This document shows positions 17,504-31,238 of a stretch of 64,000 bases of DNA, in pieces; positions within the stretch are counted from its first letter, which is position 1; the number at the start of each line of letters is the position of its first letter. The position numbers and the translations under genes were made by a program. The stretch lies in assembly GCF_002095435.2 (NCBI RefSeq), contig NZ_MJEJ02000047.1:62001-126000 (forward strand). The letters run 5' to 3'. The notes below the pieces were generated by a model. It ran no database searches, was not told where the DNA came from, and worked only from the letters and a program-made list of their open reading frames with translations. This DNA comes from Williamsia sp. 1138 (lineage in GTDB: Bacteria > Actinomycetota > Actinomycetes > Mycobacteriales > Mycobacteriaceae).

Positions 17504-17555
17504 GGTGCCCCCTCTCGGGCTCGAACCGAGGACCTGCGGATTCAAAGTCCGTAGC
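17504..17555 (-). repeat. attL: 3' fragment of tRNA-Lys
   Basis: The first 39 bases are identical to 31164-31202, then one mismatch (17543 against 31203), then 12 identical bases. It covers the tRNA's acceptor 3' strand, T-arm, variable loop and part of the anticodon arm; the 5' half is missing, so it cannot make a tRNA. The mismatch lies at anticodon position 36 of the intact tRNA, so crossover probably took place in the 39-base block. Confidence 0.88.
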
Positions 17556-17765
17556 AGAGGCGATAGCTCGTAGCTGTGCAACCTGCATCAACGCGCGCCC
17601 GAAGCGCCAACTATGCCCGTTGACCAGGCAGTATAGGTCGTTAGCAGTCGCTTCGGGTCGCTTTGCGGTCGGTCCCGGTCGGGCCCGAATCGCCCCCGGT
17701 CGCCGGGGTGAGGCCGGGGGAGCCTCGCGGGACCCCGTCCTGGGTTGACCGAGCGACTCTGCAGG

Positions 17766-17894
17766 CACGCCAAGGTCACCACCACCCTGTCGGTGTACGC
17801 GCACCTGTTCGAGGATGACCACACCGACGCCATGGCCGGGCTCGGGGCGATGGGCCAACCGCGAGGCGAGAACGTGGTACGGCTACGACGCTAG
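17766..17894 (+). pseudogene. C-terminal remnant of a tyrosine integrase
   Basis: Forty-two codons read HAKVTTTLSVYAHLF, then a tail ending VVRLRR and a stop. This is the typical end of a tyrosine recombinase: the His of GHxxxxTT and the catalytic Tyr (SVYAHLF). The rest of the gene is absent. It does not derive from the intact integrase at 27529, whose end reads HASFVTTLNVYADY. Its TAG overlaps the convergent ATPase stop in CTAG at 17891-17894. It is probably what remains of an earlier element in the same tRNA. Confidence 0.8.
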
Positions 17895-19318
17895 TCAAAT
17901 AGGCCAATCGACTTGCCGTAAATCTCAAGTTTCTTGAGCACATAGTTCGAGATGTCAGCTGATCCCGTCGAGTTCCGCCACATGAATTCAAGGCGAATTG
18001 ATTCGCCGGTTGGCAATGTGACGATGAGATCGCTGTAGTACTTCCGGTCTTTGCCGAACAGTTTCTCTGGTTCAAAGTCCGTAATTATCCCAGTCTGTTT
18101 CAAAGCGGTTGCGATGGCAATGTTTATTAGCGTGTCATTGTCTGACGCTATCGCCGTCAGGTTCGAAAAAGCCGACAAGGTGTTGCCTTTTGCCTTCGCG
18201 CCGCGACGCCCTGTGCCGAGCGTAGAGCCCTGGAGAAGTATGCCGAGCGTAGAGTCCCCAATTCGGTCAATCGCCTTGGAATCTTTGCTAGTTGACATAC
18301 CTTTTTCGGTCATTAGCTGGCGCAGACTGTCGTCCGCAAACGTGCGTGCAACCGCGAGTGCGGAGAAGACGTCTAAGTAGACGACTCGGGCATCCAGAAC
18401 CGTGCCCAGTATGCCCAACCGGTCTGGGAACTTCTGCAGGTCTGCGACAATATTGGCATTAGTCGACGTCATCATGCGATCGATATCGGCGTAGGCGTCG
18501 CGGCCTCGTGTAACCGCGTTGACCGCACTCTCCGCGTTCGAGTCGGAAACTACGATGGTCCAAACTCGCAGCGATTCTTGGGGCATCAACCCTTGGATGC
18601 GTTCCACATTTTTCTGAAGTTCAATCCGTACGCGGCCCAAGAATTCGCCAATTGTATCGCTACGGACTGCTAACTCATCGGCTCTCTCGACGCTCAACCC
18701 CAGGTTGTAGATAGATGCACCCTGATTGAGTGCGCCGATTGTTTGATCGGCGATCTTGATAAAATCAGACTTAGGTGGCCCGGTAAACAGGTGGAACTCA
18801 TCCTCGAAACCCAGCAGTGCCTTCGCTCCGATGCTGCGAGCTATGTCGGTGAGCAGTTCCACCATATTGTCGGTGTTGACCGGCCATACCAGGAGGCTTG
18901 TGCGCCCGGCTTCGGACCGGACGAAGTTGTTGGCCGCGTGAAGGTAGCTCTCGATGGACTCGCGAGCCACCTCACCCAGAGCTTCGCGACCTTCGACGAT
19001 CACGAGCCGAGGGTTGTTAGTCGCGGGCAATTCGCGCAGCGCTACCGTCAGTTCTTGCTGGCTGTCGACCGGCACGATGTCAATTTCTCGAAAGAGATTT
19101 GCCGTCTTGGCGAAGGTTGACTTCCCGGCACCCGACACGCCTTTCAGGATCATTAACCCCCCGCGCTCTGCAGAGCGTATCTCGAGGAATCGCTCGTCGA
19201 TGGCGCTGAGGCTCGCTTCGACTGGTGTAACAACGCCGCGGAGGGTTGCGGCGTCTTCAGTGGCGAGCGCCTCAAACCTGTCGGGTACTCGAAGGATCTC
19301 ACGTTCCGCAGATGTCAC
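17891..19318 (-). CDS. P-loop ATPase of unknown function, attL-side cargo
   Basis: 475 residues. A Walker A motif GVSGAGKS lies at 60-67 and a probable Walker B at RLVIVEGRE near 105. The middle is helical without a family I can name. The last 50 residues (YYSDLIVTLPTGESIRLEFMWR, then ISNYVLKKLEIYGKSIG) have spaced acidic residues and a following helix that weakly recall restriction-like nuclease folds; this is only a guess. The gene is visibly richer in A+T than its neighbours, which points to separate origin. Lone ATPases at the edges of satellites are often defence genes, but nothing in the sequence proves it. Confidence 0.8.
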   Translation of the reverse strand: MTSAEREILRVPDRFEALATEDAATLRGVVTPVEASLSAIDERFLEIRSAERGGLMILKGVSGAGKSTFAKTANLFREIDIVPVDSQQELTVALRELPATNNPRLVIVEGREALGEVARESIESYLHAANNFVRSEAGRTSLLVWPVNTDNMVELLTDIARSIGAKALLGFEDEFHLFTGPPKSDFIKIADQTIGALNQGASIYNLGLSVERADELAVRSDTIGEFLGRVRIELQKNVERIQGLMPQESLRVWTIVVSDSNAESAVNAVTRGRDAYADIDRMMTSTNANIVADLQKFPDRLGILGTVLDARVVYLDVFSALAVARTFADDSLRQLMTEKGMSTSKDSKAIDRIGDSTLGILLQGSTLGTGRRGAKAKGNTLSAFSNLTAIASDNDTLINIAIATALKQTGIITDFEPEKLFGKDRKYYSDLIVTLPTGESIRLEFMWRNSTGSADISNYVLKKLEIYGKSIGLFD

Positions 19319-19449
19319 CCGAGCATTCTGACACGAGGAACGCGGTGGCTACGGAAGCCCGCCATCAGGTGGAGTGTGTGGGGAGTGTATTAAGTGTCGC
19401 GGAGATCAGGCGTTCGACGGCCAAAAAACTTCTTTACCGGCGGCGATGA

Positions 19450-19497
19450 TGGAGCCGATGACGGAAATCGAACCCGCGTATGCAGCTTGGGAAGCTA
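19450..19497 (-). repeat. 3' fragment of tRNA-Gly(CCC), probable old attachment site
   Basis: On the minus strand the sequence reads through AGCTTCCCAAGCT (anticodon stem-loop with CCC), the T-arm GCGGGTTCGATTTCCGTC and an acceptor end GGCTCCA. The 5' half of the tRNA is missing. It is like attL of an element that uses tRNA-Gly, or the attP of such a phage, but lies inside an element that sits in tRNA-Lys. Confidence 0.7.
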
Positions 19498-19676
19498 TTT
19501 CCGGGTTGAGGCGGCTGTTCGAGTATTCGCAGCTAGACGCCTAGGCTGGTCTCGCGTTTCGCCTGATCAAGGCTACATTTGAGGGCGCTTCGGGTACGTC
19601 TTCGGACGGTTCTCGACCGGCTCGGGACGGGAGCAAATCGCTTCAACTGGAGGCCCCTGCGCGGCCCGCAGTGACC

Positions 19677-20099
19677 CTAAGACTCTAGGGCTGGCAGGTA
19701 TTCGGGGCAGTAGTACTGAACCGAGAAGTACACCAGGCTCCCGGTGTCAAAATCTGACCAGCCGTTGACCCCGCTGGGGGCTGATGCACGGTGCTCTTTG
19801 TTCAGGCCCGACTTGACGTAGAGGGCAACAGACGCGTTGGTCGCGCCGATCTCGAACATTTCGCAGATGGTTCCCGCCCACGTTTCCGGCTGGACCGCGA
19901 GTAGCTCGCCGTTGCCGTATCCCGCCACTTCTCGGCGAAAGCCTTCTGGGTCGGCGTCCGTGCCTTGCGTAGCCGAGGCGGTAGCGGGCGTCGCACTTGG
20001 TGCGCTGCTTGTGCTCGTCGTGGTGGTCGAGCCGCCTCCGCAAGCGGACATAGCCAGCACGAGAACGCCCATGAGGGCTGAGAGAAGCTTCGGTCGCAT
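19677..20099 (-). CDS. Small lipoprotein (DUF732-like)
   Basis: 140 residues. A lipoprotein signal peptide with the lipobox MSAC near residue 20, a Ser/Thr/Ala linker (STTTTSTSSAPSATPA), then a small domain with two cysteines (GTICEMF and QYYCPEYLPAL) like mycobacterial DUF732 proteins. It would be anchored to the outer face of the membrane. It is divergent from the repressor gene at 20236, the usual place for genes expressed from the integrated element. Prophage lipoproteins at this position often block superinfection; that role is a guess here. Confidence 0.78.
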   Translation of the reverse strand: MRPKLLSALMGVLVLAMSACGGGSTTTTSTSSAPSATPATASATQGTDADPEGFRREVAGYGNGELLAVQPETWAGTICEMFEIGATNASVALYVKSGLNKEHRASAPSGVNGWSDFDTGSLVYFSVQYYCPEYLPALES

Positions 20100-20235
20100 C
20101 GTGTGAAGTCCTATGGTTTGGGACCCTCTGTCGTGGTCGCGTAGGAAGCATACGACACCAATAGAGCCCTTGAACTGCGGACACGACGATTCCGCTCTGG
20201 ACCTATGCGCGCTAGACGTATGGGGTTGGTGTGCC

Positions 20236-20487
20236 ATGACTGCCGCCTCGAAGCCACCCCTGAACTCAACGCTGGGTGCGTTTGGTGCGCGCGTTCGGGC
20301 GAGGCGGCTCGAGCTTGGTTGGAGCCAAGAGGTAGCCGCACAAGAGATCGGTGTCCACTGGACCCATCTAGGGCAGGTCGAGCGCGGGCAACGAAGCGCG
20401 CGGGTGGAGAACATCCTCCGGATCGCTGCTGGCTTGCAAACCACGCCAGGGCAGCTGTTAGACGGGCTACCTAGAACAGAAAACTAG
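20236..20487 (+). CDS. XRE/Cro-C1-type HTH regulator
   Basis: 83 residues, nearly all a helix-turn-helix domain: FGARVRARRLELGWSQEVAAQEIGVHWTHLGQVERGQRSARVENILRIAAGL. The ATG at 20236 places the domain about 15 residues from the N-terminus; further upstream in-frame codons lie in the divergent promoter region. It is probably the element's main repressor, controlling the capsid gene promoter to its right and the lipoprotein to its left. Confidence 0.85.
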   Translation: MTAASKPPLNSTLGAFGARVRARRLELGWSQEVAAQEIGVHWTHLGQVERGQRSARVENILRIAAGLQTTPGQLLDGLPRTEN

Positions 20488-20654
20488 CGTGCGAGGCTGA
20501 GGGCGATGCGCGCTGTACTATCGGAAGTGCGTAGTCGCCGGAGGCGGCTCGCGTCGTACGTCGTGTAAATGCAGCGCTGAGCGCGCAACTCCCGAGGCTA
20601 GTGGCCCGGAGTGAGCACACCCCCTCATTTCAATGCCCTATGCCAGGAGTATTC

Positions 20655-21860
20655 ATGTCTCACAACGGTTTTGATCCGTTCAACTACAGCCGACCCATCT
20701 TCGGTGCCGAGCCTCGCATCAGCCGAGGCATCTCGTCTCAAGGTGACGCGCTCGTCTCAGCCACCGCCGACGGAATCGACCTCAATGTCATCTGGGATGA
20801 ATGGATCGATGTACTCGCTCTGTGGAATGAAGAGCGGACGTCGATTGCGTCGCTGCTCAGCTACTTCACCACCCTGCGTGGCGAGGCTGTGCCGCAGACG
20901 TTGTCGCAGATGAAGTTTGAGGAGGCGTCAGAGTTCGGTGTGCCCGCTTCGGGCCGGGCTACCGCGACGCCACTTGAGCTTGGTTACCCGTTCACCGACT
21001 TCGATCTGCGCCTCGCGACATCATGGAAGTTTCTGCGAGATGCCGACTCTCGTCAAATTGCGGCTAACCTCGCGGAGGCGATGGAAGCAGACAACAGGCT
21101 CGTAACCGGGTCGGTCCTGCGCCGGTTGTTCGATCCGGAACCTGGCATGAACGACGATGGCCGGAAGGTCTACGGGTTGTATACCGGCACGGACGGCGTG
21201 ACCCCGCCGCCATACATGGGGGTGGAGTTCGCCGAGTCCACCACGCACTACTTTACGACCGAAACCCCAGTGCTGGATAGTCGCGACATCGAGAGTGCGA
21301 TCAAGGCGATCACCTCGAAGGGCTACGGCCCGGCGGCAGGTGCGCAGCTGGTCATCCTCTGCAGCGAGTTCGAAGCGGACGTCATCAGCACCTGGCGGCG
21401 CGGCGAGCCCTCTCGTGACGCGACGGCTGCTGAGCTGACGACCGACTCTGGGGCGACCGGCCCGATCGCCAAGTTTGATTTTGTTCTGAGTGCCAGCGCC
21501 CCGGCGTACCTGACCGAGGAGACAATCGTTGGTCAGCAAGCGCCGGGCACGTTCAATGGCCTGCCGGTTTACGGGAGCTACGGTGAGGCGCTCATCATCA
21601 AATCCAACGTCATCCCTCCGGGGTACGTCGCCGTTGTGGCGACGGGTGGGCCGGGAAGCGACCAGAATCCGCTCGCTATCCGCCAGCACCCCAACACCGT
21701 CTACCAAGGTCTTCGAATTATCCCCGGTGCCGGGAGCTACCCGCTTCAGAACAGCTACCTCCAGCGATCCTTCGGTGTGGGTACCCGTCGCCGAGGCGCT
21801 GCGGCAGCGATCCAGGTCACCAGCGGCTCGACGTACACCGCGCCGACGTTCGCGCTCTAG
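20655..21860 (+). CDS. HK97-like major capsid protein
   Basis: 401 residues from ATG 20655 (AGGAG 6 bases upstream). The C-terminal half has the features of actinophage HK97-fold capsid proteins: LVILCSEFEADVIS, GTFNGLPVYGSYGEALIIKSNVIPPGY, LAIRQHPNTVYQGLRIIPG, then NSYLQRSFGVGTRRRGAAAAIQV. The N-terminal ~100 residues may be the scaffold-like or delta part. No protease, portal or terminase is encoded nearby, so particle formation would need a helper phage. The call is from pattern similarity, not from a search. A long hairpin follows the gene at 21879-21923. Confidence 0.75.
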   Translation: MSHNGFDPFNYSRPIFGAEPRISRGISSQGDALVSATADGIDLNVIWDEWIDVLALWNEERTSIASLLSYFTTLRGEAVPQTLSQMKFEEASEFGVPASGRATATPLELGYPFTDFDLRLATSWKFLRDADSRQIAANLAEAMEADNRLVTGSVLRRLFDPEPGMNDDGRKVYGLYTGTDGVTPPPYMGVEFAESTTHYFTTETPVLDSRDIESAIKAITSKGYGPAAGAQLVILCSEFEADVISTWRRGEPSRDATAAELTTDSGATGPIAKFDFVLSASAPAYLTEETIVGQQAPGTFNGLPVYGSYGEALIIKSNVIPPGYVAVVATGGPGSDQNPLAIRQHPNTVYQGLRIIPGAGSYPLQNSYLQRSFGVGTRRRGAAAAIQVTSGSTYTAPTFAL

Positions 21861-21878
21861 CCCCAACAGGAACGCTCA

Positions 21879-21923
21879 AACGGCCACCCGTCATCGTGCA
21901 CAGGCGCGGTGCGGGTGGCCGTT
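21879..21923 (+). terminator. Long hairpin after capsid gene
   Basis: AACGGCCACCCG (21879-21890) pairs perfectly with CGGGTGGCCGTT (21912-21923) across a 21-base loop. It begins 18 bases after the capsid stop and ends 21 bases before the next start. It may stop or slow transcription between the capsid gene and the small gene. Confidence 0.6.
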
Positions 21924-21944
21924 CCGCACTCCAGAGGAGTTCGC

Positions 21945-22160
21945 ATGAAGAACGATGACCGAGACTCTGAGTTCTCGCTTGTAGATCGCCGACTCCGCCC
22001 TGGCCGTGACGCTGCGGTCGCTGCGCCGACGCTTGATGGCGGGCGCTACCGTGGCTTGTCGCCATCAGAGCCGACCGACGACACGGAGCTGCATCAGCCG
22101 CTCCGACGGCCGGCCACGGTCCCGCTGCCAAAGAAAATTCGTCGCCCTCAGATGCCCTGA
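21945..22160 (+). CDS. Small basic protein downstream of capsid gene
   Basis: 71 residues from ATG 21945, with AGAGGAG about 7 bases upstream. The protein is hydrophilic and rich in Arg and Pro (SLVDRRLRPGRDAA, PLRRPATVPLPKKIRRPQMP), probably mostly disordered. It follows the capsid gene, so it may be a head-decoration, scaffold or head-size protein, but no similarity is recognised. Confidence 0.6.
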   Translation: MKNDDRDSEFSLVDRRLRPGRDAAVAAPTLDGGRYRGLSPSEPTDDTELHQPLRRPATVPLPKKIRRPQMP

Positions 22161-22270
22161 GCGCCGTTTCGAAGAACGGCCCGGTATGGGGGTACCCGAA
22201 ATTGACCCTCAGAACTCGTAAGGTGTTGGCCTGCTGAGCCTTCGGCGGATCGCCCTCGAGTCGGATGCGC

Positions 22271-22454
22271 TATAGTAGAAGACGTCTCCGGGGGACTCGG
22301 AGACTGCTTCGATAGGTACCTGAAGCAGGCAAATGCCCTCCATTAGCGAACGAACGCGCGTCGCAAGGCGTTGGTGAAGCCGCCCCTCAGGGGTGAGAAG
22401 CCAGCGTAGCGAGGATAGGGCGAGCCGGGTAGGCCGCGTCACGCCCAGGGTCAG
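22271..22454 (+). ncRNA. Candidate structured RNA or long 5' leader
   Basis: No convincing gene lies between 22161 and 22524. A -10-like TATAGT at 22271-22276 precedes a series of hairpins: GTCTCCG/CGGAGAC (22284-22290 with 22298-22304), CTGCTTC/GAAGCAG (22304-22310 with 22322-22328), and a CCCC-TCA-GGGG hairpin around 22383, followed by repeated GAAGCC. The density of perfect stems suggests an RNA product or a structured leader of the excisionase-like gene. I do not recognise the family. Confidence 0.4.
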
Positions 22455-22524
22455 CTAATCAACCTTGCTGACTGCCGATCTGTGCCCATTCCGGGTCGGC
22501 GCCAACCCGAGAGGACGAACGGGC

Positions 22525-22776
22525 ATGTCCGTTACGCCAAGCAACCTGAAAGACGAACCGCACACTGACCGGATGTTGCGGGGTGAGGATGGGGTCGCTG
22601 AATACCTGACCGGTATCTGTATACCCACCACGCCGCGCTTCGTTAAGACCATCTTCGAACGCGGAGAACTGCCCTACTACGTGGTCGCGCGCCGACGATT
22701 CGCGCGCGTCGGTGACGTCCTGAACTGGCTAGAGTCGACAAAGCGGAACGCCACAAGTGCGGGTGACGGGCGATGA
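22525..22776 (+). CDS. Small excisionase-like DNA-binding protein
   Basis: 83 residues from ATG 22525 (GAGAGGA upstream). The core GVAEYLTGICIPTTPRFVKTIFERGELPYYVVARRRFARVGDVLNWLES has the winged-helix layout of MerR/Xis-type excisionase proteins. Its likely task is directionality of the integrase or control of the replication genes. Its stop overlaps the next start (ATGA, 22773-22776), so it leads an operon with the unknown zinc-site protein and the prim-pol gene. Confidence 0.75.
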   Translation: MSVTPSNLKDEPHTDRMLRGEDGVAEYLTGICIPTTPRFVKTIFERGELPYYVVARRRFARVGDVLNWLESTKRNATSAGDGR

Positions 22777-23633
22777 GCAGCCGATTCAATCCTCAACGTC
22801 GACAACGGCTCATCGATAAGTTTGGAATAGCTCGCATCCGCGAGCAAGACTGGACCGGCCACCCTGCAATCGACGCCGACGAAGAGAGCGCCCTGCTCAC
22901 CAGACGCCTATCGCCGGGAGCGTCCGCGGATCCCATCATCAGGCGGTTGTGCCGGGAAGACTACGACAAGCCAGTGACGTTGGCGGATGGCGAGCTGTTG
23001 TTCGGGGCAATGGACTACCTGTACTCAGATATGTCCCGACGCCGCGCCGCCCCGTGGTGTGCTGGCGGCTACTCGGATAGCGAGCTGATTGACCGAACCG
23101 AATGCCGGTTCTTGGATCCTGAGCGGATCGATCGGTTCGCTGAGTTTCTCGGTTGGTCAGCGCATGGCCGACCCGGACAGGTAGAGGTCGTTCTCCATGA
23201 CAAGGAGGCGCCAGTGGAGCGCGGCGACCAAGGACAGGAAACGTGCATCGCGTTCCCGGTTCTGCCCAGCACCGAGGTGGACGTACCCGACGACTTTACG
23301 ATGGACCGGCCTGCGGTTGGCGAAGATACCGAGCCCAACTACGCATGGTCGGTTCAACGGCTGGTGATGCGGTTGATGTCGCTGTTCGCAACTGAATGCC
23401 GCTTCTGCACAACAGTATCCCGCCTACCGCGTGAGCGGGGAGCTTACCCCGACGTTGCCCTGGTTGTCGGTCGGGGGCAGCGGGTCCATGTGTTCCCGGC
23501 GTGCCAGTCGTGCAAGTTTGAGATCGAGCGCCCGTACTACGAAACCGAGGCCCTGGACCCGCGTGTTCTGACGTTCATGGGCAATGACGGTTTTTTCGAG
23601 CAGATCGGCCACCCCGAAGAGAAGTACTACTGA
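22773..23633 (+). CDS. Element protein of unknown function with a Cys4 site
   Basis: 286 residues. Two CxxC pairs (ECRFCTTV and ACQSCKFE, about residues 210 and 250) could bind zinc as in a treble-clef or HNH-like fold, though I see no clear HNH histidines. The N-terminal part is hydrophilic and helical. It is translated with the excisionase-like gene (4-base overlap) and sits just before the replication protein, so it probably belongs to the replication or excision module. Confidence 0.7.
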   Translation: MSSRFNPQRRQRLIDKFGIARIREQDWTGHPAIDADEESALLTRRLSPGASADPIIRRLCREDYDKPVTLADGELLFGAMDYLYSDMSRRRAAPWCAGGYSDSELIDRTECRFLDPERIDRFAEFLGWSAHGRPGQVEVVLHDKEAPVERGDQGQETCIAFPVLPSTEVDVPDDFTMDRPAVGEDTEPNYAWSVQRLVMRLMSLFATECRFCTTVSRLPRERGAYPDVALVVGRGQRVHVFPACQSCKFEIERPYYETEALDPRVLTFMGNDGFFEQIGHPEEKYY

Positions 23634-23763
23634 CGCCGATACGCCTTGCTGGATGCGGTGGGCCGGGTTTCTCGCAGTCACCACGGTTCAACCTGACCCA
23701 CCGCCAATCCAGAGGGCGGCGCTCCTCACGAATTCCACTGTGTCGCAGAAAGAATACGCAAAT

Positions 23764-26151
23764 ATGAGTATATCGTACGATCCCGATAGGCCGTCGACCG
23801 AGAGTGAACCAAGAGTCGAAGTAGATTCCTACGAGTCGCCTACTAGCGACGGTGCGCCCTCGCTCGTTAATCCGCCGAACGGACCCGCCGAGAGTGCCGC
23901 AGTCGAGATGAAAGGCCCTTCGGCGGTAGTCGATAGCCCCGGTGCTTCAGATCGAGGAGAGTTCGAGCGGCTTACGCCAGAGGAGTTCTTCAAGCATGGC
24001 AAACGTCTACTTGATCTCGGATGGCATCCGATTCCGCTCGGCAACGGTCGTGCCGATGTCAAAGGTAAGACGCCGCTAGTGATCGGGGTAACGGGCCACG
24101 AAGGCAAAGACATCGAAACTACCGAGGAACTTCGGAAGTGGGCCGACAGGCTTGCCACACGGGCAGGCGGAATGAACCTTGGCACCCGAATGCCTATGGG
24201 CGTCATTGGTATCGACATCGATTGCTATGACGGTAAGCCTGGCGCGGAAACGATCAGACGACACGAGGCGAAATGGGGTTCGCTGCCTGCAACGTGGTCT
24301 CTGACCGCGCGGACTGACGGAAGCAGGAAGCTGTTCTTTCGCGTGCCCGTGGGGTGGGCAGGTCCGGGTGTTCTTGCAGAGGGTGGTGTTGAAATTCTCC
24401 AGCGTCATCACCGCTACGCGGTTGCCCCTCCGTCCGTGCACCACTCCGGCACGAGGGTCCGCGCGTTCGATCCTGCCGGGGAAGAATGTGTGCAGCTGCC
24501 GCGTCCGAGCGAGCTTCCTGAGTTGCCCGTGTCGTGGCTGCAGGGTCTCGATCACCATGTGGAGGCACTCACGAAGGCGACTGTGGCGGAGGGAAGAGAG
24601 GTATGGAGCAGCTTCAAGAGCGGACCAATGACGCCCGAAGTAGCAGAGCAGGTCAACGGTGTTTTGGACGCGATCCACAATGGTGCCAGCAGATTCGATG
24701 CCTGTAGGAACGCGATCTTCGCATTGGTGGGTTTCGGTCTCGAGCGGCACTCAGGTGTGGCACCCGCGTTGCGGACCATCGAGGACCAATATCTGGGTGC
24801 TATAGGCCCGATCCGTGGGCAGGATGCAGCGCGCGGGGAGATCGAGCGCATGATCCAAGGCGCATTGCGGAAGATGGCGGCCAACCATCCTGCCGCGCAG
24901 ATGACTGAAGACGACTGGGTTATGGGCCGTGAGGCTTTCGCGCCGGGTGGTGCCTGGCACCCAGACAACCCGCGCGGGAACGCCTACCGCCACCCGGGCA
25001 CTATCGACGGCCAGCCGGTCCGGTCACCTGAGGGTCGGCAGTTCACGCAGTCCCTGGCGGGAGTTGAACCGACGAAGGTGCAATGGCTCTGGTGGCCGTG
25101 GATTCCGCTGGGCAAGCTGACAATGTTCGAAGGTGAGCCGGACGTAGGCAAGTCGACGATGACTTTGGCCTGGGCCGCAACAGTGTCGAACGGTGGGAGC
25201 TGGCCCCGCTCAGTTGTGGGCGAAACGATGAGCAGCAATGAGAAGGGGCTGCACGAACCAGCGGATGTTGTGCTGGTTGGGATGGAGGACGACCTCGCCG
25301 ACACAGTGGTACCCCGATTGAACGCTGCGGGTGCCGACCTCTCTCGCATCTCAACGATGGCACGTCCTCGCGACCGCGATGGCCGCCCAATTCCCTTCCT
25401 GATCCCGGAAGACGTGGACAAGCTCAAACGGGCAATCGAGGAGGTCGAAGCCAAGCTCGTCGTTATCGACCCGATCAGTGCCTTCATGTCGGACACGGTG
25501 AAGGCCGGGAGCGACAGTTCAAACCGGAAGGCGTTGATGGAACTCGTGGACGTCGCAGAACAGACAGGTGCGGCGGTGGTGCTGGTGCGGCACCTTAACA
25601 AGGCCACGGGAATGAATGCGAAGCATCGGGGCGGCGGCTCAATCGCCTTCACGGCGCTCGCGCGATCCGCGCTCATCGCAGCCAAACTCCCGCGAACCGA
25701 CGACCGCGAGAACACGCAGGCGACGCATGGGTTGGCTTCCATCAAAGGCAACCTGAGCAGGGAGCCGAAGGCTCTGGGCTACCGGCTCATCTCAAGCCTG
25801 ACCGATGCCGATTCACCAGTGGTGCGGTGGGAGGGTGTGCTGGATGAGAATGCTGACCAACTCGTCGGTGCGGACGGGATCGCAGGCGACGCGCGCAAGT
25901 CGGCCCCAGCGAGAGACGAAGCGGAACGGATGATCGGGGAACTACTTTCAGCCGGGCCGATGGACGCTCAGGAGGTTCGGAGGGCGGTGATGAGAGAGGT
26001 CGGTTGCAGCGCAAAGACAGTCGCCAACGCTGCAAACAAGATGCGGGTAATTAAGAAGGCCGTTCGCGACAGTAGCGGCAGGGTCACTCACTGGATGTGG
26101 ACGCTGTCGGGCCGTCTGGAGAGGAGCGGCGGGGATGCGGGCGGAGGCTAG
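23764..26151 (+). CDS. Prim-pol / RepA-type helicase replication protein
   Basis: 795 residues from ATG 23764. Residues ~70-270 are a bifunctional primase-polymerase domain: the metal pair DID at 151-153 (GVIGIDIDCYDGKPG), SRKLFFRVP, and HHRYAVAPPSVHHSG. A RepA/AAA_25-like helicase domain follows, with Walker A GEPDVGKST (about 457-465), Walker B LVVIDPISAFM and VVLVRHLNKATG. A C-terminal winged-helix-like tail ends the protein. It would prime and unwind DNA for replication of the excised element, much like the primase gene of phiRv1. An inverted-repeat region that may be the origin lies right after the stop. Confidence 0.87.
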   Translation: MSISYDPDRPSTESEPRVEVDSYESPTSDGAPSLVNPPNGPAESAAVEMKGPSAVVDSPGASDRGEFERLTPEEFFKHGKRLLDLGWHPIPLGNGRADVKGKTPLVIGVTGHEGKDIETTEELRKWADRLATRAGGMNLGTRMPMGVIGIDIDCYDGKPGAETIRRHEAKWGSLPATWSLTARTDGSRKLFFRVPVGWAGPGVLAEGGVEILQRHHRYAVAPPSVHHSGTRVRAFDPAGEECVQLPRPSELPELPVSWLQGLDHHVEALTKATVAEGREVWSSFKSGPMTPEVAEQVNGVLDAIHNGASRFDACRNAIFALVGFGLERHSGVAPALRTIEDQYLGAIGPIRGQDAARGEIERMIQGALRKMAANHPAAQMTEDDWVMGREAFAPGGAWHPDNPRGNAYRHPGTIDGQPVRSPEGRQFTQSLAGVEPTKVQWLWWPWIPLGKLTMFEGEPDVGKSTMTLAWAATVSNGGSWPRSVVGETMSSNEKGLHEPADVVLVGMEDDLADTVVPRLNAAGADLSRISTMARPRDRDGRPIPFLIPEDVDKLKRAIEEVEAKLVVIDPISAFMSDTVKAGSDSSNRKALMELVDVAEQTGAAVVLVRHLNKATGMNAKHRGGGSIAFTALARSALIAAKLPRTDDRENTQATHGLASIKGNLSREPKALGYRLISSLTDADSPVVRWEGVLDENADQLVGADGIAGDARKSAPARDEAERMIGELLSAGPMDAQEVRRAVMREVGCSAKTVANAANKMRVIKKAVRDSSGRVTHWMWTLSGRLERSGGDAGGG

Positions 26152-26181
26152 ATGCCCTCGGTTCCCTCCTCTATCGACTAG

Positions 26182-26277
26182 GGGGTTCTAGGGGATTCTG
26201 GGTACCTGGTTCGAGTCCAGTTACGGGGCAGAACAATTGCCAATCGGCTGTCAGACCCAGGTTCCCCTAGAACCCTC
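26182..26277. repeat. Long inverted repeat, possible origin of element replication
   Basis: The left arm (26182-26202, core GTTCTAGGGGA) pairs with the right arm (26256-26277, core TCCCCTAGAAC) with few mismatches, around a ~53-base loop. The loop contains CTGGTTCGAGTCCAG, which looks like a tRNA T-arm. Further CTAGGGG/CCCCTAG units follow to 26290. The 619-base stretch 26152-26770 holds no gene that I can support. Placed after the prim-pol gene it could be an origin, an attP-like site or a terminator. Confidence 0.5.
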
Positions 26278-26770
26278 TAGATACCCCTAGAAGTACTAGA
26301 AGAAAGGGGGAGTAGGTCGCGCGCGAGGACGCTGCATCGCGACCGCGATGCGCTCCGATTGGTGCGTCATGCCAGCTAGGCCGTTTAGCCACAGGTGTTC
26401 TCTGGCTCTCCGCTCGCTCATCGCCACTTCGTAAGCGGCAACACGCCTCGGCTGTCCTGCCTGGCAGCAACCCAGGCCATCGCCACGCTAGCCAGTTGAA
26501 GGGACGTACTCACCTAACGAGGCCGGACCCGCAGTCAAGATGGCGTGCGTTGGAGCTAGCTGGGTAGAACCGCCGCTGCTGCGCCGGGTAGCGGAACCCC
26601 GCGAGGCGTGCGCAACACGCAAGATGATGAGAAGGCAAGTGGTTGAACAGATTATGGAGAATGCGAGGACGTGTACTTGGCGTACGGTAGGCGGCGTCGT
26701 AAACCGGTAAACGGTCGTTGAGCGATTCCGACGCCCAGCGAGCAGGCGGAACAAGCAGGAGGCACGAACC

Positions 26771-27529
26771 ATGAGCAAGTCATCCAATCGAGCGGAGAAC
26801 CTACGCCGCGCCCTGGCATCTGGCAGCAAGCCGGACACCGTTGATTCAGCTGGTACCAAGGTGGAAACCGCTGCAGAGCAGATACTTCCGCTGACCTTGG
26901 TCGGCTACGCGCGGGTATCGACGGCCACTCAGCACGTGAAGGGCTACGGACTACGCGCCCAGGAGGACTTTCTGGCGCAGTGGTGCGCGGCACGCGGACA
27001 CCAATTGCTCACTGTCACAAACGATGTGATCAGCGGAACGAAGGCGGAACAGATGAATGGCAGGGCAGTAGCCATCGCAGCGATCGAAGCGGGCCTCGCG
27101 GACGGGTTGCTGGTGCGCGCGTTGGATCGGGCAACGCGTGACCAGCTCGACGCTGCATCCCTCTACAAGCAGGCAGAGAAGCGCGGATGGCGGTTGATGG
27201 ACTGCGACAACGCAGACAGCAGCGACCCGAGCCAGAGGCTGACGGCTGACATTCGGCTCGCCGTGGCAGCGGAGGAGCGCAGGCGGATCAGCATCCGGAC
27301 GAAGGAAGGGCTGGCGCGTGCGAAGCGCGAGGGTAAGAAGCTTGGCCGGCCAAGTCGGATCGACCCAATTGTGGTGGAGGAGATCGTGTTGATGAGACGC
27401 GACGAAGGGCTGGGGCCGAAAGCGATAGCGACGTACCTGGATCAGGCGCAGATACCGACGCCTGGTGGTGGTGAGCGTTGGCACTACGCGACAGTGCGCC
27501 GCGTACTCAAACGAGAGGGAGTGGCCTGA
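26771..27529 (+). CDS. Serine recombinase (resolvase/invertase type)
   Basis: 252 residues. The catalytic domain begins with VGYARVSTATQ; the nucleophile is Ser50. Other motifs are LLVRALDRATRDQLD and ERRRISIRTKEGLARAKREGKKLGRPS, then a Recombinase/HTH tail (GLGPKAIATYLDQAQIP). It is too short for a large serine integrase (no zinc-ribbon/coiled-coil arm), so it acts more likely as a resolvase or invertase. AGGAGG lies 9 bases before the ATG. Its stop shares one base with the start of the tyrosine integrase, so the two are co-translated. Confidence 0.9.
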   Translation: MSKSSNRAENLRRALASGSKPDTVDSAGTKVETAAEQILPLTLVGYARVSTATQHVKGYGLRAQEDFLAQWCAARGHQLLTVTNDVISGTKAEQMNGRAVAIAAIEAGLADGLLVRALDRATRDQLDAASLYKQAEKRGWRLMDCDNADSSDPSQRLTADIRLAVAAEERRRISIRTKEGLARAKREGKKLGRPSRIDPIVVEEIVLMRRDEGLGPKAIATYLDQAQIPTPGGGERWHYATVRRVLKREGVA

Positions 27530-28989
27530 TGGCATACATACGCGCCCACGAAACGAACCAGCGTCGCAATGGCAAAGCGGTCAAGCGATACGAGGTCGTG
27601 TGGACCGAGCCTGTGAGGGACGCGATGGGGCTTCCGGTGTCCGTCGATCCGACAACCCCGACCGGTAAGAAGCGCCAACGGTCGCGGCAGGAGAGCTACG
27701 CAACCCGCGAAGCTGCGGAGGAGCGGCGGGACCAACTGAACGCGGCGAGGCGTACCGCTACAGGCACGGCCACGCTCGCGGACCAGCGCAAGGCAGGAGA
27801 CCTACCAATCGGCCACTACGCGCGGGAGTTCATCGAGTCCATGCGGGGGACAGTCAAGCCGAGAACGGTCCGCGAGACGGAGTCGGTGTACCTGCGCTAC
27901 ATCGCGGAACCATTCGGAGGCCGGGCAGTAGCGAGCGTGACGGCTGCGGACGTTCGCCACTTCCGCGCGGACCTGTTGTCGCCGAGACCGCGCCGTAGCT
28001 ACGACACCCGTTCGGCGAACCGCACTGAGGTCGACCCAGGCAACGCGACGGAGTTCGTGACGCTGTCTCGATCGACCGTCAAGCACGCCTACGACGTTCT
28101 CCGGCGAATCTTGGATGTCGCCGTAGTGGACGGGGCGATCCACGCGAACCCGGTGCACTCCGTGCCACTGCCCCGGCAGGCCGCGACCGCCAGGACGACG
28201 GACCCGACGACCGGAAAGCCGAAAGAGCCGTTCAAGCCGCTACCGCTGACCGGCGCTCAGGTCGCCGCAGTGGCCGGCCACGTAGCCGAGACGATGGGCC
28301 GCCCCATCGACGCTCTCGCCGTCACGTTCAGCGCCTACACCGGCGTCCGAGCGGGCGAGCTGCGGGGCTTGGAGATAGGTGACCTCGACCTGACGGACCG
28401 TTCGGGCGCGCTCGGCTCGGTATCCATCACGCGCACGAAGACGCGACGTAAGGGCGGTTGGGAGGTGGGCACCCCGAAGTCGGTTCGGTCCACGCGAATA
28501 GTGCCGATTGATGGCTGGCTGGCGGACGACCTCCGGACGTACCTTGCGGGCCATCCTCGCCGACTCGACCCGGCTGCGCCGTTGTTTCCAGGCAGGATGA
28601 CCCGAGCCGACGCGAAGGCAGCAGGAGTGAACGCGAATGACCCGACGGCGACTGTGAAGTGGTCGGAGCCGATCAATACCGACAACGTCTCGGACCGCTA
28701 CTACACACCCGCCCTGGCAGCTGTAGGCGCTCCTGCGGCCCGCTGGCACGACCTGCGCCACACGTTCGCGGTGCTGAGCCTCAGCGCCGGCGAGCACTAC
28801 ATGCAGGTGTCGAAGTGGCTAGGTCACGCCAGCTTCGTGACGACGTTGAACGTGTACGCCGACTACATCTCGGAGGCTGAGGGTGGCAAGAAAGCGCCGC
28901 TTACGCGTCCTGAACTGGCGCACCCGGCGCACCTGGCGCAGCGGGATCAGTCGGTTCCGTCGAATGTGGTGAGCTTGTTTGGTCGGTAG
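27529..28989 (+). CDS. Tyrosine integrase of the element
   Basis: 486 residues from ATG 27529 (1-base overlap with the recombinase stop). N-terminal arm-binding part, a core-binding SAM-like domain (PIGHYAREFIESMRGTVKPRTVRETES), then the catalytic domain with Arg near 273 (GVRAGELRGLEI), HDLRH near 407, His in WLGHASF, and Tyr near 443 (TTLNVYADY). It should catalyse integration between attP and the tRNA-Lys 3' end. It is 2.2 kb from attR rather than next to it, because a minus-strand cargo operon lies between. Confidence 0.93.
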   Translation: MAYIRAHETNQRRNGKAVKRYEVVWTEPVRDAMGLPVSVDPTTPTGKKRQRSRQESYATREAAEERRDQLNAARRTATGTATLADQRKAGDLPIGHYAREFIESMRGTVKPRTVRETESVYLRYIAEPFGGRAVASVTAADVRHFRADLLSPRPRRSYDTRSANRTEVDPGNATEFVTLSRSTVKHAYDVLRRILDVAVVDGAIHANPVHSVPLPRQAATARTTDPTTGKPKEPFKPLPLTGAQVAAVAGHVAETMGRPIDALAVTFSAYTGVRAGELRGLEIGDLDLTDRSGALGSVSITRTKTRRKGGWEVGTPKSVRSTRIVPIDGWLADDLRTYLAGHPRRLDPAAPLFPGRMTRADAKAAGVNANDPTATVKWSEPINTDNVSDRYYTPALAAVGAPAARWHDLRHTFAVLSLSAGEHYMQVSKWLGHASFVTTLNVYADYISEAEGGKKAPLTRPELAHPAHLAQRDQSVPSNVVSLFGR

Positions 28990-29542
28990 GCGGTGCTTCG
29001 AGCAAGAGTCGTGCGGCATTCGCAAAATCCCGAGAAGAGAGCGCGACTTTCTTGGTCGCGGCTTGTAGCTGTTGCTGTGTGTCGTTCAGAAATCCAATCG
29101 GTGAGACATGGGACGTGAGGCCGACCGGGTCGGACTGTGCTACCGCAAGCGCTTCTATGAGGGAGTTCCAGACGTCTGAAATCTCGGCCTCTAGCTGGTC
29201 GCGCACTACGAGACTAACGCGGGCGCTCAGGTCGGGGATAACTGAAATTCGGTTCGTCTCGTTGATCCAGTTTGATGCAAACTCGGTCATTTTCCACTGA
29301 GGTGCAGCGTTGATTCGGCTCGACGCCTGATGCGCCACGGACAAGATTTCATCACATAGTGTCGCTAGCTTATTTCTCTTCCATTGAAGCCACTCACGCG
29401 ACGCCGCAGCCTCCAACGTTTCACTATGCTGCTTCCGCGCGAGCTCAAGGGTCTGTCGGTTCTGACGTTGGTTTGCGACCAGGACGATTAGCGTGACCAG
29501 CGCGATAAGAGCGCTGCCGATCAGCGGGTAGATGTCGCTCAT
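28901..29542 (-). CDS. Membrane-anchored coiled-coil protein, attR-side cargo
   Basis: 213 residues. One N-terminal membrane helix (SALIALVTLIVLVANQ), then a coiled-coil-like stretch (LELARKQHSETLEAAASREWLQWKRNKLATL) and a helical domain, with a Pro/Ala/Gly-rich tail. It is likely anchored with the bulk in the cytoplasm. Last gene of a three-gene operon; its start overlaps the stop of the previous gene (ATGA, 29539-29542). Its tail overlaps the end of the integrase gene by 89 bases on the other strand. No family recognised. Confidence 0.72.
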   Translation of the reverse strand: MSDIYPLIGSALIALVTLIVLVANQRQNRQTLELARKQHSETLEAAASREWLQWKRNKLATLCDEILSVAHQASSRINAAPQWKMTEFASNWINETNRISVIPDLSARVSLVVRDQLEAEISDVWNSLIEALAVAQSDPVGLTSHVSPIGFLNDTQQQLQAATKKVALSSRDFANAARLLLEAPPTDQTSSPHSTEPTDPAAPGAPGAPVQDA

Positions 29543-30405
29543 TCGCCACCCCCGTCTCGCCGCTCCGCCCGCTGCGAAAGTCGCTGTTCACGGCGCTCCT
29601 GAGCTAGACGCACCCGTTCTGCCCGTTGTCTTGAAACTTCAGCGCGGCGGGCCCGCTCAGCGTCGGCATCGGTCGGGTAGACCCAGACGCCCTTGTGCTC
29701 ATCACCAAACTCAGTCAGCGACCTCGCGATCGAGGCGAGTTGCGCATTCTGTGCCCCGAGCTTCGCCTCAAGGTCCTTCGCGAGACTGTGTAGGTTCTTG
29801 GTCTCGACCGTTACCTTCGCCTGAAGCGGCGTCCAGTCGAGCACGGCTTCGGTGTTTAGTGCTCTGCCGTGGCTGTCTCGATATGTGACCAGTGCGCTGA
29901 ACTTTGATTCCAGCTGTGTATCGGCTTCGTTTCGGGAAGCCAGGTCATCCCAATTTGTGCGCCATTCTTGGTTGGGGACAAGCATCGGGATCTCTCGCGG
30001 ATACATCAGATGAGTGACACGTTCGCCGGTGTCCAGCCGCTCGAACGGCGTCACGTCCAATTCCGGGGTGAACGCGAGCATGATGTCGTAGGCGGGTGTC
30101 AGCCCAAAGTTCTTGACTACGAGGTCGCAGAAACCCCAGTGATTTTCGTCGGGCTCCATAAACGCGACGACATTCGGCTGTGCCTGTTCCTGGCGAAGCT
30201 TCTGGGCATCCGCCGCCTGCTCGATTCTGGCCTGCTCCGCTTGGCCTATTTGCTCCCGCGCTTGCTCGACTTGCTTCTTTGCGTACCGGCCTGTCACGAC
30301 GACGGTGCCGCCCGCGATCAGGACTGTGGCCCAGGCTGCGATGGCCGCCCACGCTCCGGACGGGAGTGCCCAGAGATTGTCCCAAATGCCCTCAAGCCAG
30401 TCCAC
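29539..30405 (-). CDS. Membrane-anchored coiled-coil protein with beta domain, attR-side cargo
   Basis: 288 residues. One membrane helix near 18-40 (AWAAIAAWATVLIAGGTVVV), a Gln/Glu/Ala-rich coiled coil (YAKKQVEQAREQIGQAEQARIEQAADAQKLRQ; residues ~42-75), then a beta-rich domain beginning PNVVAFMEPDENHWGFCDLVVKNFGLTPAYDI, and a long Arg/Glu-rich C-terminal helix. Such membrane-plus-beta proteins are frequent unknown cargo in actinobacterial islands. It is coupled to the next gene by a 4-base overlap and starts 23 bases after the DUF4145 gene ends. Confidence 0.75.
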   Translation of the reverse strand: MDWLEGIWDNLWALPSGAWAAIAAWATVLIAGGTVVVTGRYAKKQVEQAREQIGQAEQARIEQAADAQKLRQEQAQPNVVAFMEPDENHWGFCDLVVKNFGLTPAYDIMLAFTPELDVTPFERLDTGERVTHLMYPREIPMLVPNQEWRTNWDDLASRNEADTQLESKFSALVTYRDSHGRALNTEAVLDWTPLQAKVTVETKNLHSLAKDLEAKLGAQNAQLASIARSLTEFGDEHKGVWVYPTDADAERARRAEVSRQRAERVRLAQERREQRLSQRAERRDGGGE

Positions 30406-30428
30406 GGAGCATCCTCTGTTCTCGTCGC

Positions 30429-31037
30429 CTATTCGGCGTCATCGGTGTTGGGCAACTCAAGTTCTCCAGGGACCTCAAACAAGTTTCTTAGGAGCTGCGT
30501 AGTGAAATTGAGAGCCTGTTCTGCCGTCTCCTCGTCGACTCGTTCATCACCCGCATGGGCCCCCATATTGCCCACCGCACGTATCCGGTGCATCGCTTCG
30601 CCGAATTGCTTGGTAACGAGCCCTTGCTCGATCAACTTCTCAATGCTCCGTTGAAGAACGCGCTCTCGGACTTCGAACCGTGCGGCGGCTGCCTCAAGCG
30701 TTCGCCGCAACTGCACTGCCGCGGCATCAGGAACGCCTGCATCTAATACTCTTCGGGCGTCGTTGTAGTAGTTGCGGACGTCCTCGGGTAGGTGCTTCAC
30801 ATCCATCTTCATATCGTCCGCGTCGGGAATCACACGCACGATGGTTGCTCGGGCCTGGTGAGGCTTAGCGGTCTGAAGCATTGTCAGACGACCACAATCG
30901 GGACATTCGAGGATCGTGTGGGTGAGGACACTGCCTCGTGCGGTAACTGACTGATGGTCCGAAAGAACCAGTCCCATGTGGGCGCGTTTCAGCCCGCAGT
31001 ACCCGCAGGTGCGCATCGCCATGTGTGGTTCAAACAT
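30429..31037 (-). CDS. Zinc-ribbon DUF4145-type protein, attR-side cargo
   Basis: About 202 residues. An N-terminal zinc ribbon (TCGYC and ECPDCG) precedes a helical DUF4145-like domain: DVRNYYNDARRVLDAGVPDAAAVQLRRTLEAAAARF, IRAVGNMGAHAGDERVDEETAEQALNFTTQLLRNLFEVP. DUF4145 also occurs in type I restriction enzymes and other defence loci, where its function is unclear. First gene of the three-gene operon at the right end of the element. ATG 31037 is my choice; TTG 31067 and ATG 31022 are possible, as no Shine-Dalgarno is obvious. Confidence 0.75.
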   Translation of the reverse strand: MFEPHMAMRTCGYCGLKRAHMGLVLSDHQSVTARGSVLTHTILECPDCGRLTMLQTAKPHQARATIVRVIPDADDMKMDVKHLPEDVRNYYNDARRVLDAGVPDAAAVQLRRTLEAAAARFEVRERVLQRSIEKLIEQGLVTKQFGEAMHRIRAVGNMGAHAGDERVDEETAEQALNFTTQLLRNLFEVPGELELPNTDDAE

Positions 31038-31163
31038 GGAACGAATGATCGCACTCGACCCCGACAAACCCGGCGTGACGCGCGGTCGCCGGGGTAAAAC
31101 CGGGATGGCGGGGGTGAGTCGGACGGGTCAGGAACGCCGTAGCGCTCCGACCAGGGTGTTCGC

Positions 31164-31215
31164 GGTGCCCCCTCTCGGGCTCGAACCGAGGACCTGCGGA
31201 TTAAAAGTCCGTAGC
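31164..31215 (-). repeat. attR: shared repeat within intact tRNA-Lys
   Basis: Copy of 17504-17555 with one mismatch at 31203. It overlaps the 3' end of tRNA-Lys(TTT), so integration restores the tRNA. This is the usual pattern for tyrosine integrases that use tRNA 3' ends. Confidence 0.88.
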
Positions 31216-31238
31216 TCTACCAACTGAGCTAAAGGGGC
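31166..31238 (-). tRNA. tRNA-Lys(TTT)
   Basis: A complete 73-base cloverleaf on the minus strand: acceptor GCCCCTT with AGGGGGC, D-arm AGCTCAGTTGGTAGAGCT, anticodon loop CTTTTAA (TTT), T-arm TCGGTTCGAGCCCGA, discriminator A. The CCA end is not encoded. Its 3' half is the attachment site of the element. Confidence 0.95.

What the first reader, a model, noticed from the sequence alone, without database searches (positions are those of the whole stretch)
17504..31215. Capsid-encoding satellite-like element in tRNA-Lys
Seen: 52-base direct repeats with one mismatch, the right copy in the intact tRNA; integrase, serine recombinase, excisionase-like protein, repressor, prim-pol/helicase and HK97-like capsid gene; no terminase, portal, protease or tail gene. 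Known: phiRv1/phiRv2 of M. tuberculosis and cf-PICI satellites encode some capsid genes. Inference: this is a defective or helper-dependent element whose closest relatives and helper are unknown. A single capsid gene with no protease is unusual even for those families.
Basis: partly seen in the sequence, partly recalled or inferred. Interest (0 to 1): 0.75.

Follow-up and report, generated by a model that had tools for sequence, protein, structure and literature searches.

The report
Capsid-borrowing satellite in tRNA-Lys gene
A 13.7 kb piece of mobile DNA in a soil actinobacterium carries its own replication and integration genes plus one phage shell gene, and related elements in many actinobacteria suggest it spreads by slotting that shell protein into a lytic phage's assembly line.

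Summary
A 13.66 kb element lies between 52-nt repeats (one mismatch), the right copy inside an intact tRNA-Lys. It encodes a tyrosine integrase, a serine recombinase, a prim-pol/helicase, a repressor and one HK97-fold capsid protein; no portal, large terminase, protease or tail gene was found. It does not look like a decayed prophage. Two other genomes of the genus have the uninterrupted site. The capsid gene has relatives in 50 of 401 family genomes; 32 of 51 loci examined have matching end repeats, and 25 of these span 11.7-13.7 kb. Twelve of 12 capsid pairs show purifying selection (dN/dS 0.06-0.26), and the capsids lie apart from those of 56-72 kb phages that lack integrases. Of 55 head, packaging and tail-module proteins from three such phages, the capsid recurs in 32 of 32 elements and the others almost never. 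Many relatives, but not this element, also carry a homologue of those phages' small terminase subunit. I read it as a helper-dependent satellite of that phage lineage that supplies its own shell subunit. Packaging and helper are inferred, not shown. Integrase-plus-capsid "candidate PICIs" are in print for Mycobacterium (PMC10654092); this is a new variant of that kind.

The parts
17504..17555 (.). attL: 52-nt repeat copy
   Evidence: the site is uninterrupted in L216 and L217
17891..19318 (-). 475-aa AAA-like ATPase, probable cargo
   Evidence: weak AAA hits; 89% identical protein inside the related element L041
19677..20123 (-). small lipoprotein-like protein, DUF732-like, cargo
   Evidence: DUF732 E 0.0055, below cutoff
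20236..20487 (+). HTH (Xre-type) regulator; start chosen by comparison with relatives
   Evidence: HTH_3 6.6e-11; relatives at 54-79% identity; sequence read
20655..21860 (+). major capsid protein, HK97 fold, Patience-like family, 401 aa
   Evidence: phrog_3990 2.4e-93; model matches PDB 8giu/8saj, E 2e-31 to 2e-33; dN/dS 0.11-0.14 against its nearest kin, dS saturated
21909..22160 (+). small protein just after the capsid gene, a diverged copy of the family's SEFSWGPG...GGxYRG protein
   Evidence: 43% to the L031 copy; motif scan; no library hit of its own
22465..22776 (+). excisionase/AlpA-like DNA-binding protein
   Evidence: cluster 6, present in 12 of 51 loci; library support weak
22773..23633 (+). 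286-aa conserved protein with paired CxxC-type motifs (my reading), function unknown
   Evidence: cluster 5, present in 17 of 51 loci; no library hit
23764..26151 (+). prim-pol/helicase replication protein; exact start uncertain (ORF opens at 23584)
   Evidence: Prim-Pol 3.9e-17, AAA_25 7.7e-31
26178..26302 (.). putative replication origin: CTAGGGG repeats in an inverted repeat (26178-26203 / 26255-26280)
   Evidence: first-listed inverted repeat of the element, 26 nt, 88% complementary; the densest repeat cluster lies at this place in 22 of 29 elements; this copy alone is not above shuffles
26771..27529 (+). serine recombinase, resolvase/invertase type, 252 aa
   Evidence: Resolvase 7e-29; present in 33 of 51 loci
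27532..28989 (+). tyrosine integrase
   Evidence: phrog_1 1.3e-47; 89% identical in L031 at the same tRNA-Lys
28901..29542 (-). 213-aa protein of unknown function, cargo
   Evidence: no significant hit
29539..30405 (-). 288-aa protein, cargo
   Evidence: phrog_9607 3.2e-18, unknown function; relatives in other elements
30429..31067 (-). DUF4145 protein, candidate anti-phage cargo
   Evidence: DUF4145 4.8e-16; PADLOC PD-T7-4 6.4e-13
31164..31215 (.). attR: repeat copy inside tRNA-Lys
31164..31238 (-). intact tRNA-Lys(TTT), integration target

Best explanation
The element is an integrated, helper-dependent phage satellite. Shown: it inserted at the 3' end of tRNA-Lys, encodes integration, regulation and replication functions and one major capsid protein, and belongs to a family kept together at about 12.4 kb. 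Inferred: on infection by a phage of the lineage of Patience, Troll4, Konstantine and DumpTruck it excises, replicates from an origin beside its prim-pol gene, and feeds its own capsid protein into the helper's portal, scaffold, protease and tail assembly, so that shells accept satellite DNA, probably smaller ones or ones holding several copies. Many relatives also bring their own small terminase subunit, presumably to redirect packaging; this element lacks it and would need a helper-like packaging site.
For: Site-specific insertion: repeat and intact tRNA. Empty site: the flanking gene was sought in 9 genus genomes (own included) and found at high identity in 4 others; in 2 of these 4 the window's joined flanks align without a break (1651 and 1466 columns), in a third with a gap near the junction, in the fourth not. 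Family: capsid homologue in 50 of 401 family genomes, a few only as fragments; among W and 50 fetched loci, capsid cluster in 47, prim-pol 36, integrase 36, serine recombinase 33, TerS-like 25; 32 with qualifying end repeats, 25 of them 11.7-13.7 kb. Capsid only: of 55 phage proteins the capsids hit 32 of 32 elements, plus two short hits in L040 to DumpTruck proteins of unknown function; cross-phage control positive. Two worlds: of the best 80 viral contigs (234 matched) 77 have other structural genes and 2 have integrase or recombinase; of 77 bacterial contigs 0 have named structural genes and 71 have integrase, recombinase or prim-pol. Separate descent: 35 satellite and 17 phage capsids split on one branch, 100/99. 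Helper lineage: 0 of 17 such phages match the integrase families phrog_1 or phrog_95; 12 of 17 have a TerS homologue, annotated as terminase small subunit in Patience. Own origin: repeat cluster at the prim-pol 3' end in 22 of 29. Function kept: dN/dS 0.06-0.26 in 12 of 12 pairs.
Against: No packaging, induction or transfer was observed. This element has no TerS by the most sensitive search, its small post-capsid protein is diverged, and its repeat cluster is not above shuffles. Scaffold absence rests on a weak control. One named bacterial contig (L168) has a weak match to a phage tail-region protein. At constant DNA density a 12-14 kb molecule fills only about a fifth of the T=7 shell of Patience/Adjutor, so a new shell size or several copies per shell must be assumed. 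No resident helper of this lineage was found in the genome, though that negative is weak. Satellite and phage capsids are only about 40% identical, so mixing with a helper's parts is not assured.
Confidence: 0.7

Rival explanations
1. Defective prophage: the remnant of a temperate phage that lost all late genes but the capsid gene.
For: A lone structural gene next to an integrase is what decay can leave; some loci look broken or altered (L055, L070 and L041 at 6.0-8.6 kb, L036 and L040 at 15.4-16.1 kb).
Against: The same capsid-only set recurs in 32 elements with narrow size, purifying selection and separate capsid descent. None of 17 phages with this capsid family matches the integrase families searched, so no temperate parent is seen.
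Confidence: 0.1
2. Phage-defence island: the capsid protein poisons the helper's shell assembly (dominant negative), and the element is not itself packaged.
For: Capsid without partners; a candidate defence gene beside it (PD-T7-4-like); cargo differs between elements.
Against: TerS-like gene in 21 of 32 repeat-bounded elements, own prim-pol with a repeat cluster, integrase, constant size and wide spread point to transfer. Poisoning and packaging are not exclusive.
Confidence: 0.12
3. Domesticated shell: the capsid protein forms an encapsulin-like compartment for the host.
For: HK97 fold; encapsulins appear lower in the fold search.
Against: The four best matches are phage capsids at 35-38% identity, E 2e-31 to 2e-33, against 6e-9 or weaker for encapsulins; it sits in mobile elements with replication and packaging-type genes.
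Confidence: 0.03

Closest known systems
Candidate mycobacterial PICIs (integrase plus major capsid protein), PMC10654092
   Same: Integrase and capsid gene, tRNA integration, some with DNA replication genes or terminase; presented as satellites. Several elements of the present family lie in Mycobacterium and probably fall inside that broad class.
   Different: That class is defined only by integrase plus any capsid gene and mixes diverse capsids, phiRv elements and elements with scaffold genes. It does not, in the section read, describe this capsid lineage, the lack of other virion genes, the TerS pairing, the origin or the size constraint, and it covers Mycobacterium.
Capsid-forming PICIs (cf-PICIs)
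   Same: Satellite-encoded capsid protein.
   Different: Described as encoding capsid, protease, portal, connectors and both terminase subunits, needing only tails (PMC10690885, passages read); here only the capsid, and TerS in many relatives.
Classical PICIs / SaPIs
   Same: Integrase, regulator, primase with origin, TerS in some, similar size (recalled).
   Different: Change capsid size with scaffold-like proteins such as Rcm or CpmB (PMC12409344, abstract read) instead of carrying a capsid gene.
phiRv1/phiRv2 and other small mycobacterial prophage-like elements, PMC3986857
   Same: About 9-12 kb, integrase, several with primase and capsid. phiMmcs_2 is listed with a capsid gene, HNH genes and a phiRv1-type integrase only.
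   Different: phiBN42_1, phiBN44_1 and phiMCAN_1 also carry a protease or portal/terminase genes (passages read). The gene lists of phiRv1/phiRv2 were not seen and no sequence comparison was made here.
Patience-like actinophages (Patience, Troll4, Konstantine, DumpTruck)
   Same: Capsid family (36-40% identity for these four) and TerS family (all four hit).
   Different: 65-71 kb; the three neighbourhoods read in phages of this capsid family (DumpTruck, Patience, Kurnik) have a full virion module; no integrase match.
Streptomyces satellites MulchRoom and MiniFlayer, PMC10690885
   Same: Actinobacterial satellites of virulent phages with own capsid genes.
   Different: They encode a full capsid and packaging set and have no primase (passages read).

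Membership tests
Phage satellite (general) | Integrates site-specifically and lacks a full virion gene set | tested here: met
Phage satellite (general) | Packaged and transferred by a helper phage | not testable with these tools
   needs infection and particle sequencing
Classical PICI | No phage structural genes (recalled definition) | tested here: not met
   major capsid gene present, phrog_3990 2.4e-93
Classical PICI | Integrase, regulator, primase with replication origin (recalled definition) | tested here: inconclusive
   integrase, regulator and prim-pol present; the origin is inferred from repeats
cf-PICI | Own capsid protein | tested here: met
cf-PICI | Own protease, portal, connectors and large terminase | tested here: not met
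   none found in 32 elements with a positive cross-phage control; PHROGs tables of 273 element ORFs show none among the families listed, but only 25 of 40, 53 and 71 families are shown
[quoted passage not shown]
   the host is Williamsia-like, not Mycobacterium
Defective prophage | Capsid gene free to decay | tested here: not met
   dN/dS 0.06-0.26 in 12 of 12 pairs
TerS-bearing part of this family | TerS-like gene | tested here: not met
   no hit in the window element with filters off; 21 of 32 elements have it at E below 1e-10, 2 more weakly

The most novel reading that the evidence does not exclude
A satellite strategy not seen in the listings of ten paper searches: instead of building a whole head (cf-PICI) or bending the helper's shell with a scaffold (P4, SaPI, PLE), these elements replace only the shell subunit, and in many cases also the DNA-recognition subunit TerS, inside a virulent helper's otherwise complete head-and-tail assembly line. 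The satellite capsid lineages stem from probably two or more captures and have since evolved apart from phage capsids under selection.
Probability: 0.45. Interest if true: 0.78.

Novelty: new variant of a known kind. Interest (0 to 1): 0.62.

Why it matters
If right, it names a likely helper lineage (actinophages with solved capsids, 8giu and 8saj) for a satellite family whose capsid gene is found in about one in eight sampled genomes of the family (50 of 401). It would make subunit swapping in phage capsids directly testable in laboratory M. smegmatis and Gordonia strains. It also offers an explanation for lone capsid genes that are otherwise easily filed as prophage remnants.

Tried and rejected
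Ideas dropped. (1) Serine recombinase as a capsid-gene invertase: capsid orientation relative to the integrase differs between elements (5 changes of state on the tree; states assigned by me), but no inverted repeats neatly flank the capsid gene in the window (25 of 53 pairs shown); left open, a resolvase role is equally possible. (2) The small protein after the capsid gene as a homologue of phage gp1: it shares the SEFSWGPG peptide with Troll4 gp1 (E 1.6e-6 in a set of 9, but 0.0036 in 19,905 ORFs, and only 1 of 82 phage stretches hit). Its profile was built from 21 scan lines, two of which were clearly false. Kept as a weak lead. It does not match gp4, the hexamer stabiliser. (3) Predicted structure of the TerS-like protein: poor model (pTM 0.35) and no significant fold match; NV1 small terminase appears at E 2.9. 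The TerS reading rests on sequence profiles. (4) Resident helper: no DumpTruck-like portal in the own genome; phrog_9 gave nothing, but I had not verified what that family is, so I draw nothing from it. (5) Capsid in plasmids: none. Single-sequence scans of genome contigs and viral contigs found nothing; the profile scans did.

Limits of counts. The family search drew 401 genomes from a larger group and scored at most 4 candidates a genome. Of W plus 50 fetched loci (L031-L080), 32 had a direct repeat that I accepted; the other 19 were dropped before the size count. Choices made: for L063 an 18-nt repeat although a 19-nt pair gives 15.8 kb; for L037 the 10.2 kb pair although a 48-nt pair gives 13.6 kb; for L062 the repeat, since the filter was misled by a second integrase; for L038, L049 and L060 a 15-nt repeat, the same sequence in each and contained in the 24-nt repeat of L067. 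The capsid alignment has 36 of 48 cluster members and the tree has 35 of them (L056 dropped for a disrupted C-terminus); a first tree had one phage protein in the wrong frame and was replaced. In the larger quick tree (160 rows, 149 different), 70 satellites plus one unclassified row form one side of a branch and 3 satellites fall among phages. The repeat-cluster score was compared with shuffles for 6 elements only: above the shuffled maximum in 4, not in W (4 against a maximum of 6.5) or L034; the misses in the position count are L033, L045, L057, L058, L059, L060 and L066. In some searches I scanned 273 of 315 listed ORFs, leaving out L055, L058, L070, most TerS-like ORFs and a few others; in the third table families weaker than 6.6e-88 with one member are hidden, so that scan excludes little by itself.
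Full report
WHAT IS THERE. The window lies in a 6.08 Mb genome of a genus in which 2 of 9 held genomes, own included, have the capsid gene. The other is Williamsia muralis NBRC 105860: locus G003 and the named contig of L138 share the length 1,430,875. The element runs from 17504 to 31215. Its two 52-nt repeats differ at one base, and the right one is the 3' part of an intact tRNA-Lys. The gene left of the element was found at high identity in four other genomes of the genus. In two of them the window's joined flanks align without a break, over 1651 columns at 91.8% (L216) and 1466 columns at 91.7% (L217); a third (L218) aligns on both sides with a gap near the junction; the fourth (L219) is arranged differently. 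So the repeats mark a real insertion site.

GENES. Order on the plus strand: HTH regulator, major capsid protein, a small protein, excisionase-like protein, a conserved 286-aa protein, prim-pol/helicase, a gap with CTAGGGG repeats, serine recombinase, tyrosine integrase. Minus-strand genes at both ends look like cargo; one resembles the anti-phage protein PD-T7-4 (6.4e-13), and another, the 475-aa ATPase, is 89% identical in a related element of another genus (L041), which fits cargo moving between elements.

THE CAPSID PROTEIN. It matches PHROG 3990 (2.4e-93) and 152 phage records, all under 60% identity. The AlphaFold model (mean pLDDT 77.8) matches the solved capsids of phages Patience and Adjutor (8giu, 8saj; E 2e-31 to 2e-33, 35-38% identity). 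These form T=7 shells with split hexamers around 64.5-70.5 kb genomes (PMC10635136; abstract, passages and part 1 of the results read).

A FAMILY, NOT A RELIC. Capsid homologues occur in 50 of 401 genomes of the family, a few only as fragments, and in 9 of 394 of the class sample. Around them the same genes recur: prim-pol in 36, integrase in 36, serine recombinase in 33 and a TerS-like protein in 25 of 51 loci, window included. For 32 of the 51 I could bracket the element by a direct repeat, at tRNA genes (Lys, Gly, Leu, Arg, Met) or at the 3' end of a GTPase gene (ychF, name recalled) in four (L038, L049, L060, L067); 25 of the 32 span 11.7-13.7 kb, median 12.4 kb; the other seven are 6.0-10.3 kb or 15.4-16.1 kb. 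Some repeats had to be chosen among alternatives (see Tried and rejected). Capsid pairs show dN/dS 0.06-0.26 in 12 of 12 comparisons (dS is saturated for the window pairs).

ONE SHELL GENE AND NO MORE. I searched 55 proteins of the head, packaging and tail modules of phages DumpTruck, Patience and Kurnik against the 32 elements. Capsid proteins hit 32 of 32; the only others were two short matches in L040 to DumpTruck proteins of unknown function. Portal, terminase, protease, minor capsid and major tail proteins do match among the three phages, so the method works for these; scaffolds cross-match only between DumpTruck gp12 and Kurnik. In 77 named bacterial contigs with this capsid family, none has such structural genes (one weak match to a tail-region protein in L168) and 71 have integrase, recombinase or prim-pol; 61 have the TerS-like gene. 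In the best 80 of 234 viral contigs it is the reverse: 77 have structural genes and two carry integrase or recombinase. Some named bacterial contigs are the same as unnamed ones, so the sets overlap.

DESCENT. In a careful tree, 35 satellite and 17 phage capsids fall on opposite sides of one branch (100/99). In a larger quick tree of 160 rows, 70 satellites plus one unclassified contig form one side of a branch (SH-aLRT 100), and three satellites from Nocardioides and Intrasporangiaceae sit among phages, so the gene was probably captured at least twice.

LIKELY HELPER. Of 17 phages with this capsid family (56-72 kb, chosen by me from 152 records), 0 match the integrase families phrog_1 or phrog_95, so they look virulent. 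A profile of the satellites' TerS-like protein hits 12 of the 17, among them Patience gp3, annotated terminase small subunit (51 bits). The two proteins, capsid and TerS, thus both occur in one phage lineage. That makes this lineage the best candidate helper. It is an inference from shared genes, not an observed interaction.

REPLICATION ORIGIN. The densest short-repeat cluster of an element is centred within -150 to +500 nt of the prim-pol 3' end in 22 of 29 elements, where about 5% would be expected by position. The repeat itself mostly differs between elements, as expected of origin iterons. Of six elements compared with shuffles, four exceed the shuffled maximum and two, the window and L034, do not. 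In the window it is four CCCCTAG/CTAGGGG copies in a 26-nt inverted repeat.

MECHANISM. Most likely steps: helper infection, excision by the integrase, replication from the prim-pol-linked origin, assembly of the satellite capsid protein on the helper's portal and scaffold, packaging by the helper's large terminase (guided by satellite TerS where present), helper tails. Only insertion, gene content, conservation and selection are shown. If genome length scales with T to the power 1.5 from 64.5-70.5 kb at T=7, a 12.4 kb molecule would fill a shell near T=2.3, so one expects either smaller shells (T=3 or 4) with one or two copies, or a T=7 shell with about five; this is my arithmetic, not a tool result.

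THIS ELEMENT'S OWN STATE. It has open integrase, recombinase, prim-pol and capsid frames, but no TerS, which its close repeat-bounded relatives L031 and L033 also lack. It may use helper TerS through a packaging site of its own, or have lost autonomy in packaging.

PRIOR WORK. The listings of ten paper searches showed no description of capsid-plus-TerS-only satellites; the library holds open-licence papers only, and one search listed 12 of 37 papers. The broad class of Mycobacterium 'candidate PICIs' with integrase and capsid gene is in print (PMC10654092, section 9 read), and one older mycobacterial element, phiMmcs_2, is listed with a capsid and integrase and no other virion gene among its four assigned genes (PMC3986857, passages). 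Hence: new variant of a known kind.

Noticed in passing
window 30429-31067: DUF4145 protein matching PADLOC model PD-T7-4 (6.4e-13), a candidate anti-phage gene carried as cargo.
   Followed up: partly
   Followed up: no
L038, L049, L060, L067: Members of the family are integrated at the 3' end of a GTPase gene (ychF, name recalled) instead of a tRNA.
   Followed up: partly
loci L031-L080: The capsid gene points the same way as the integrase in some elements and the opposite way in others, with 5 changes on the capsid tree; the cause is unknown.
   Followed up: partly
   Followed up: no
L179, L191: One Nocardioides MAG contig holds two capsid genes of this family about 12.2 kb apart, close to one element length, so possibly tandem satellites.
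   Followed up: no
window 21909-22160 and relatives: A small protein right after the capsid gene with a conserved SEFSWGPG...GGxYRG pattern was found by motif scan in 19 of 32 elements; it shares the first peptide with phage Troll4 gp1.
   Followed up: partly
L212: A capsid match on a contig labelled as a Rhodanobacter MAG, the only non-actinobacterial label I noticed among 77 named loci; mis-binning is possible.
   Followed up: no
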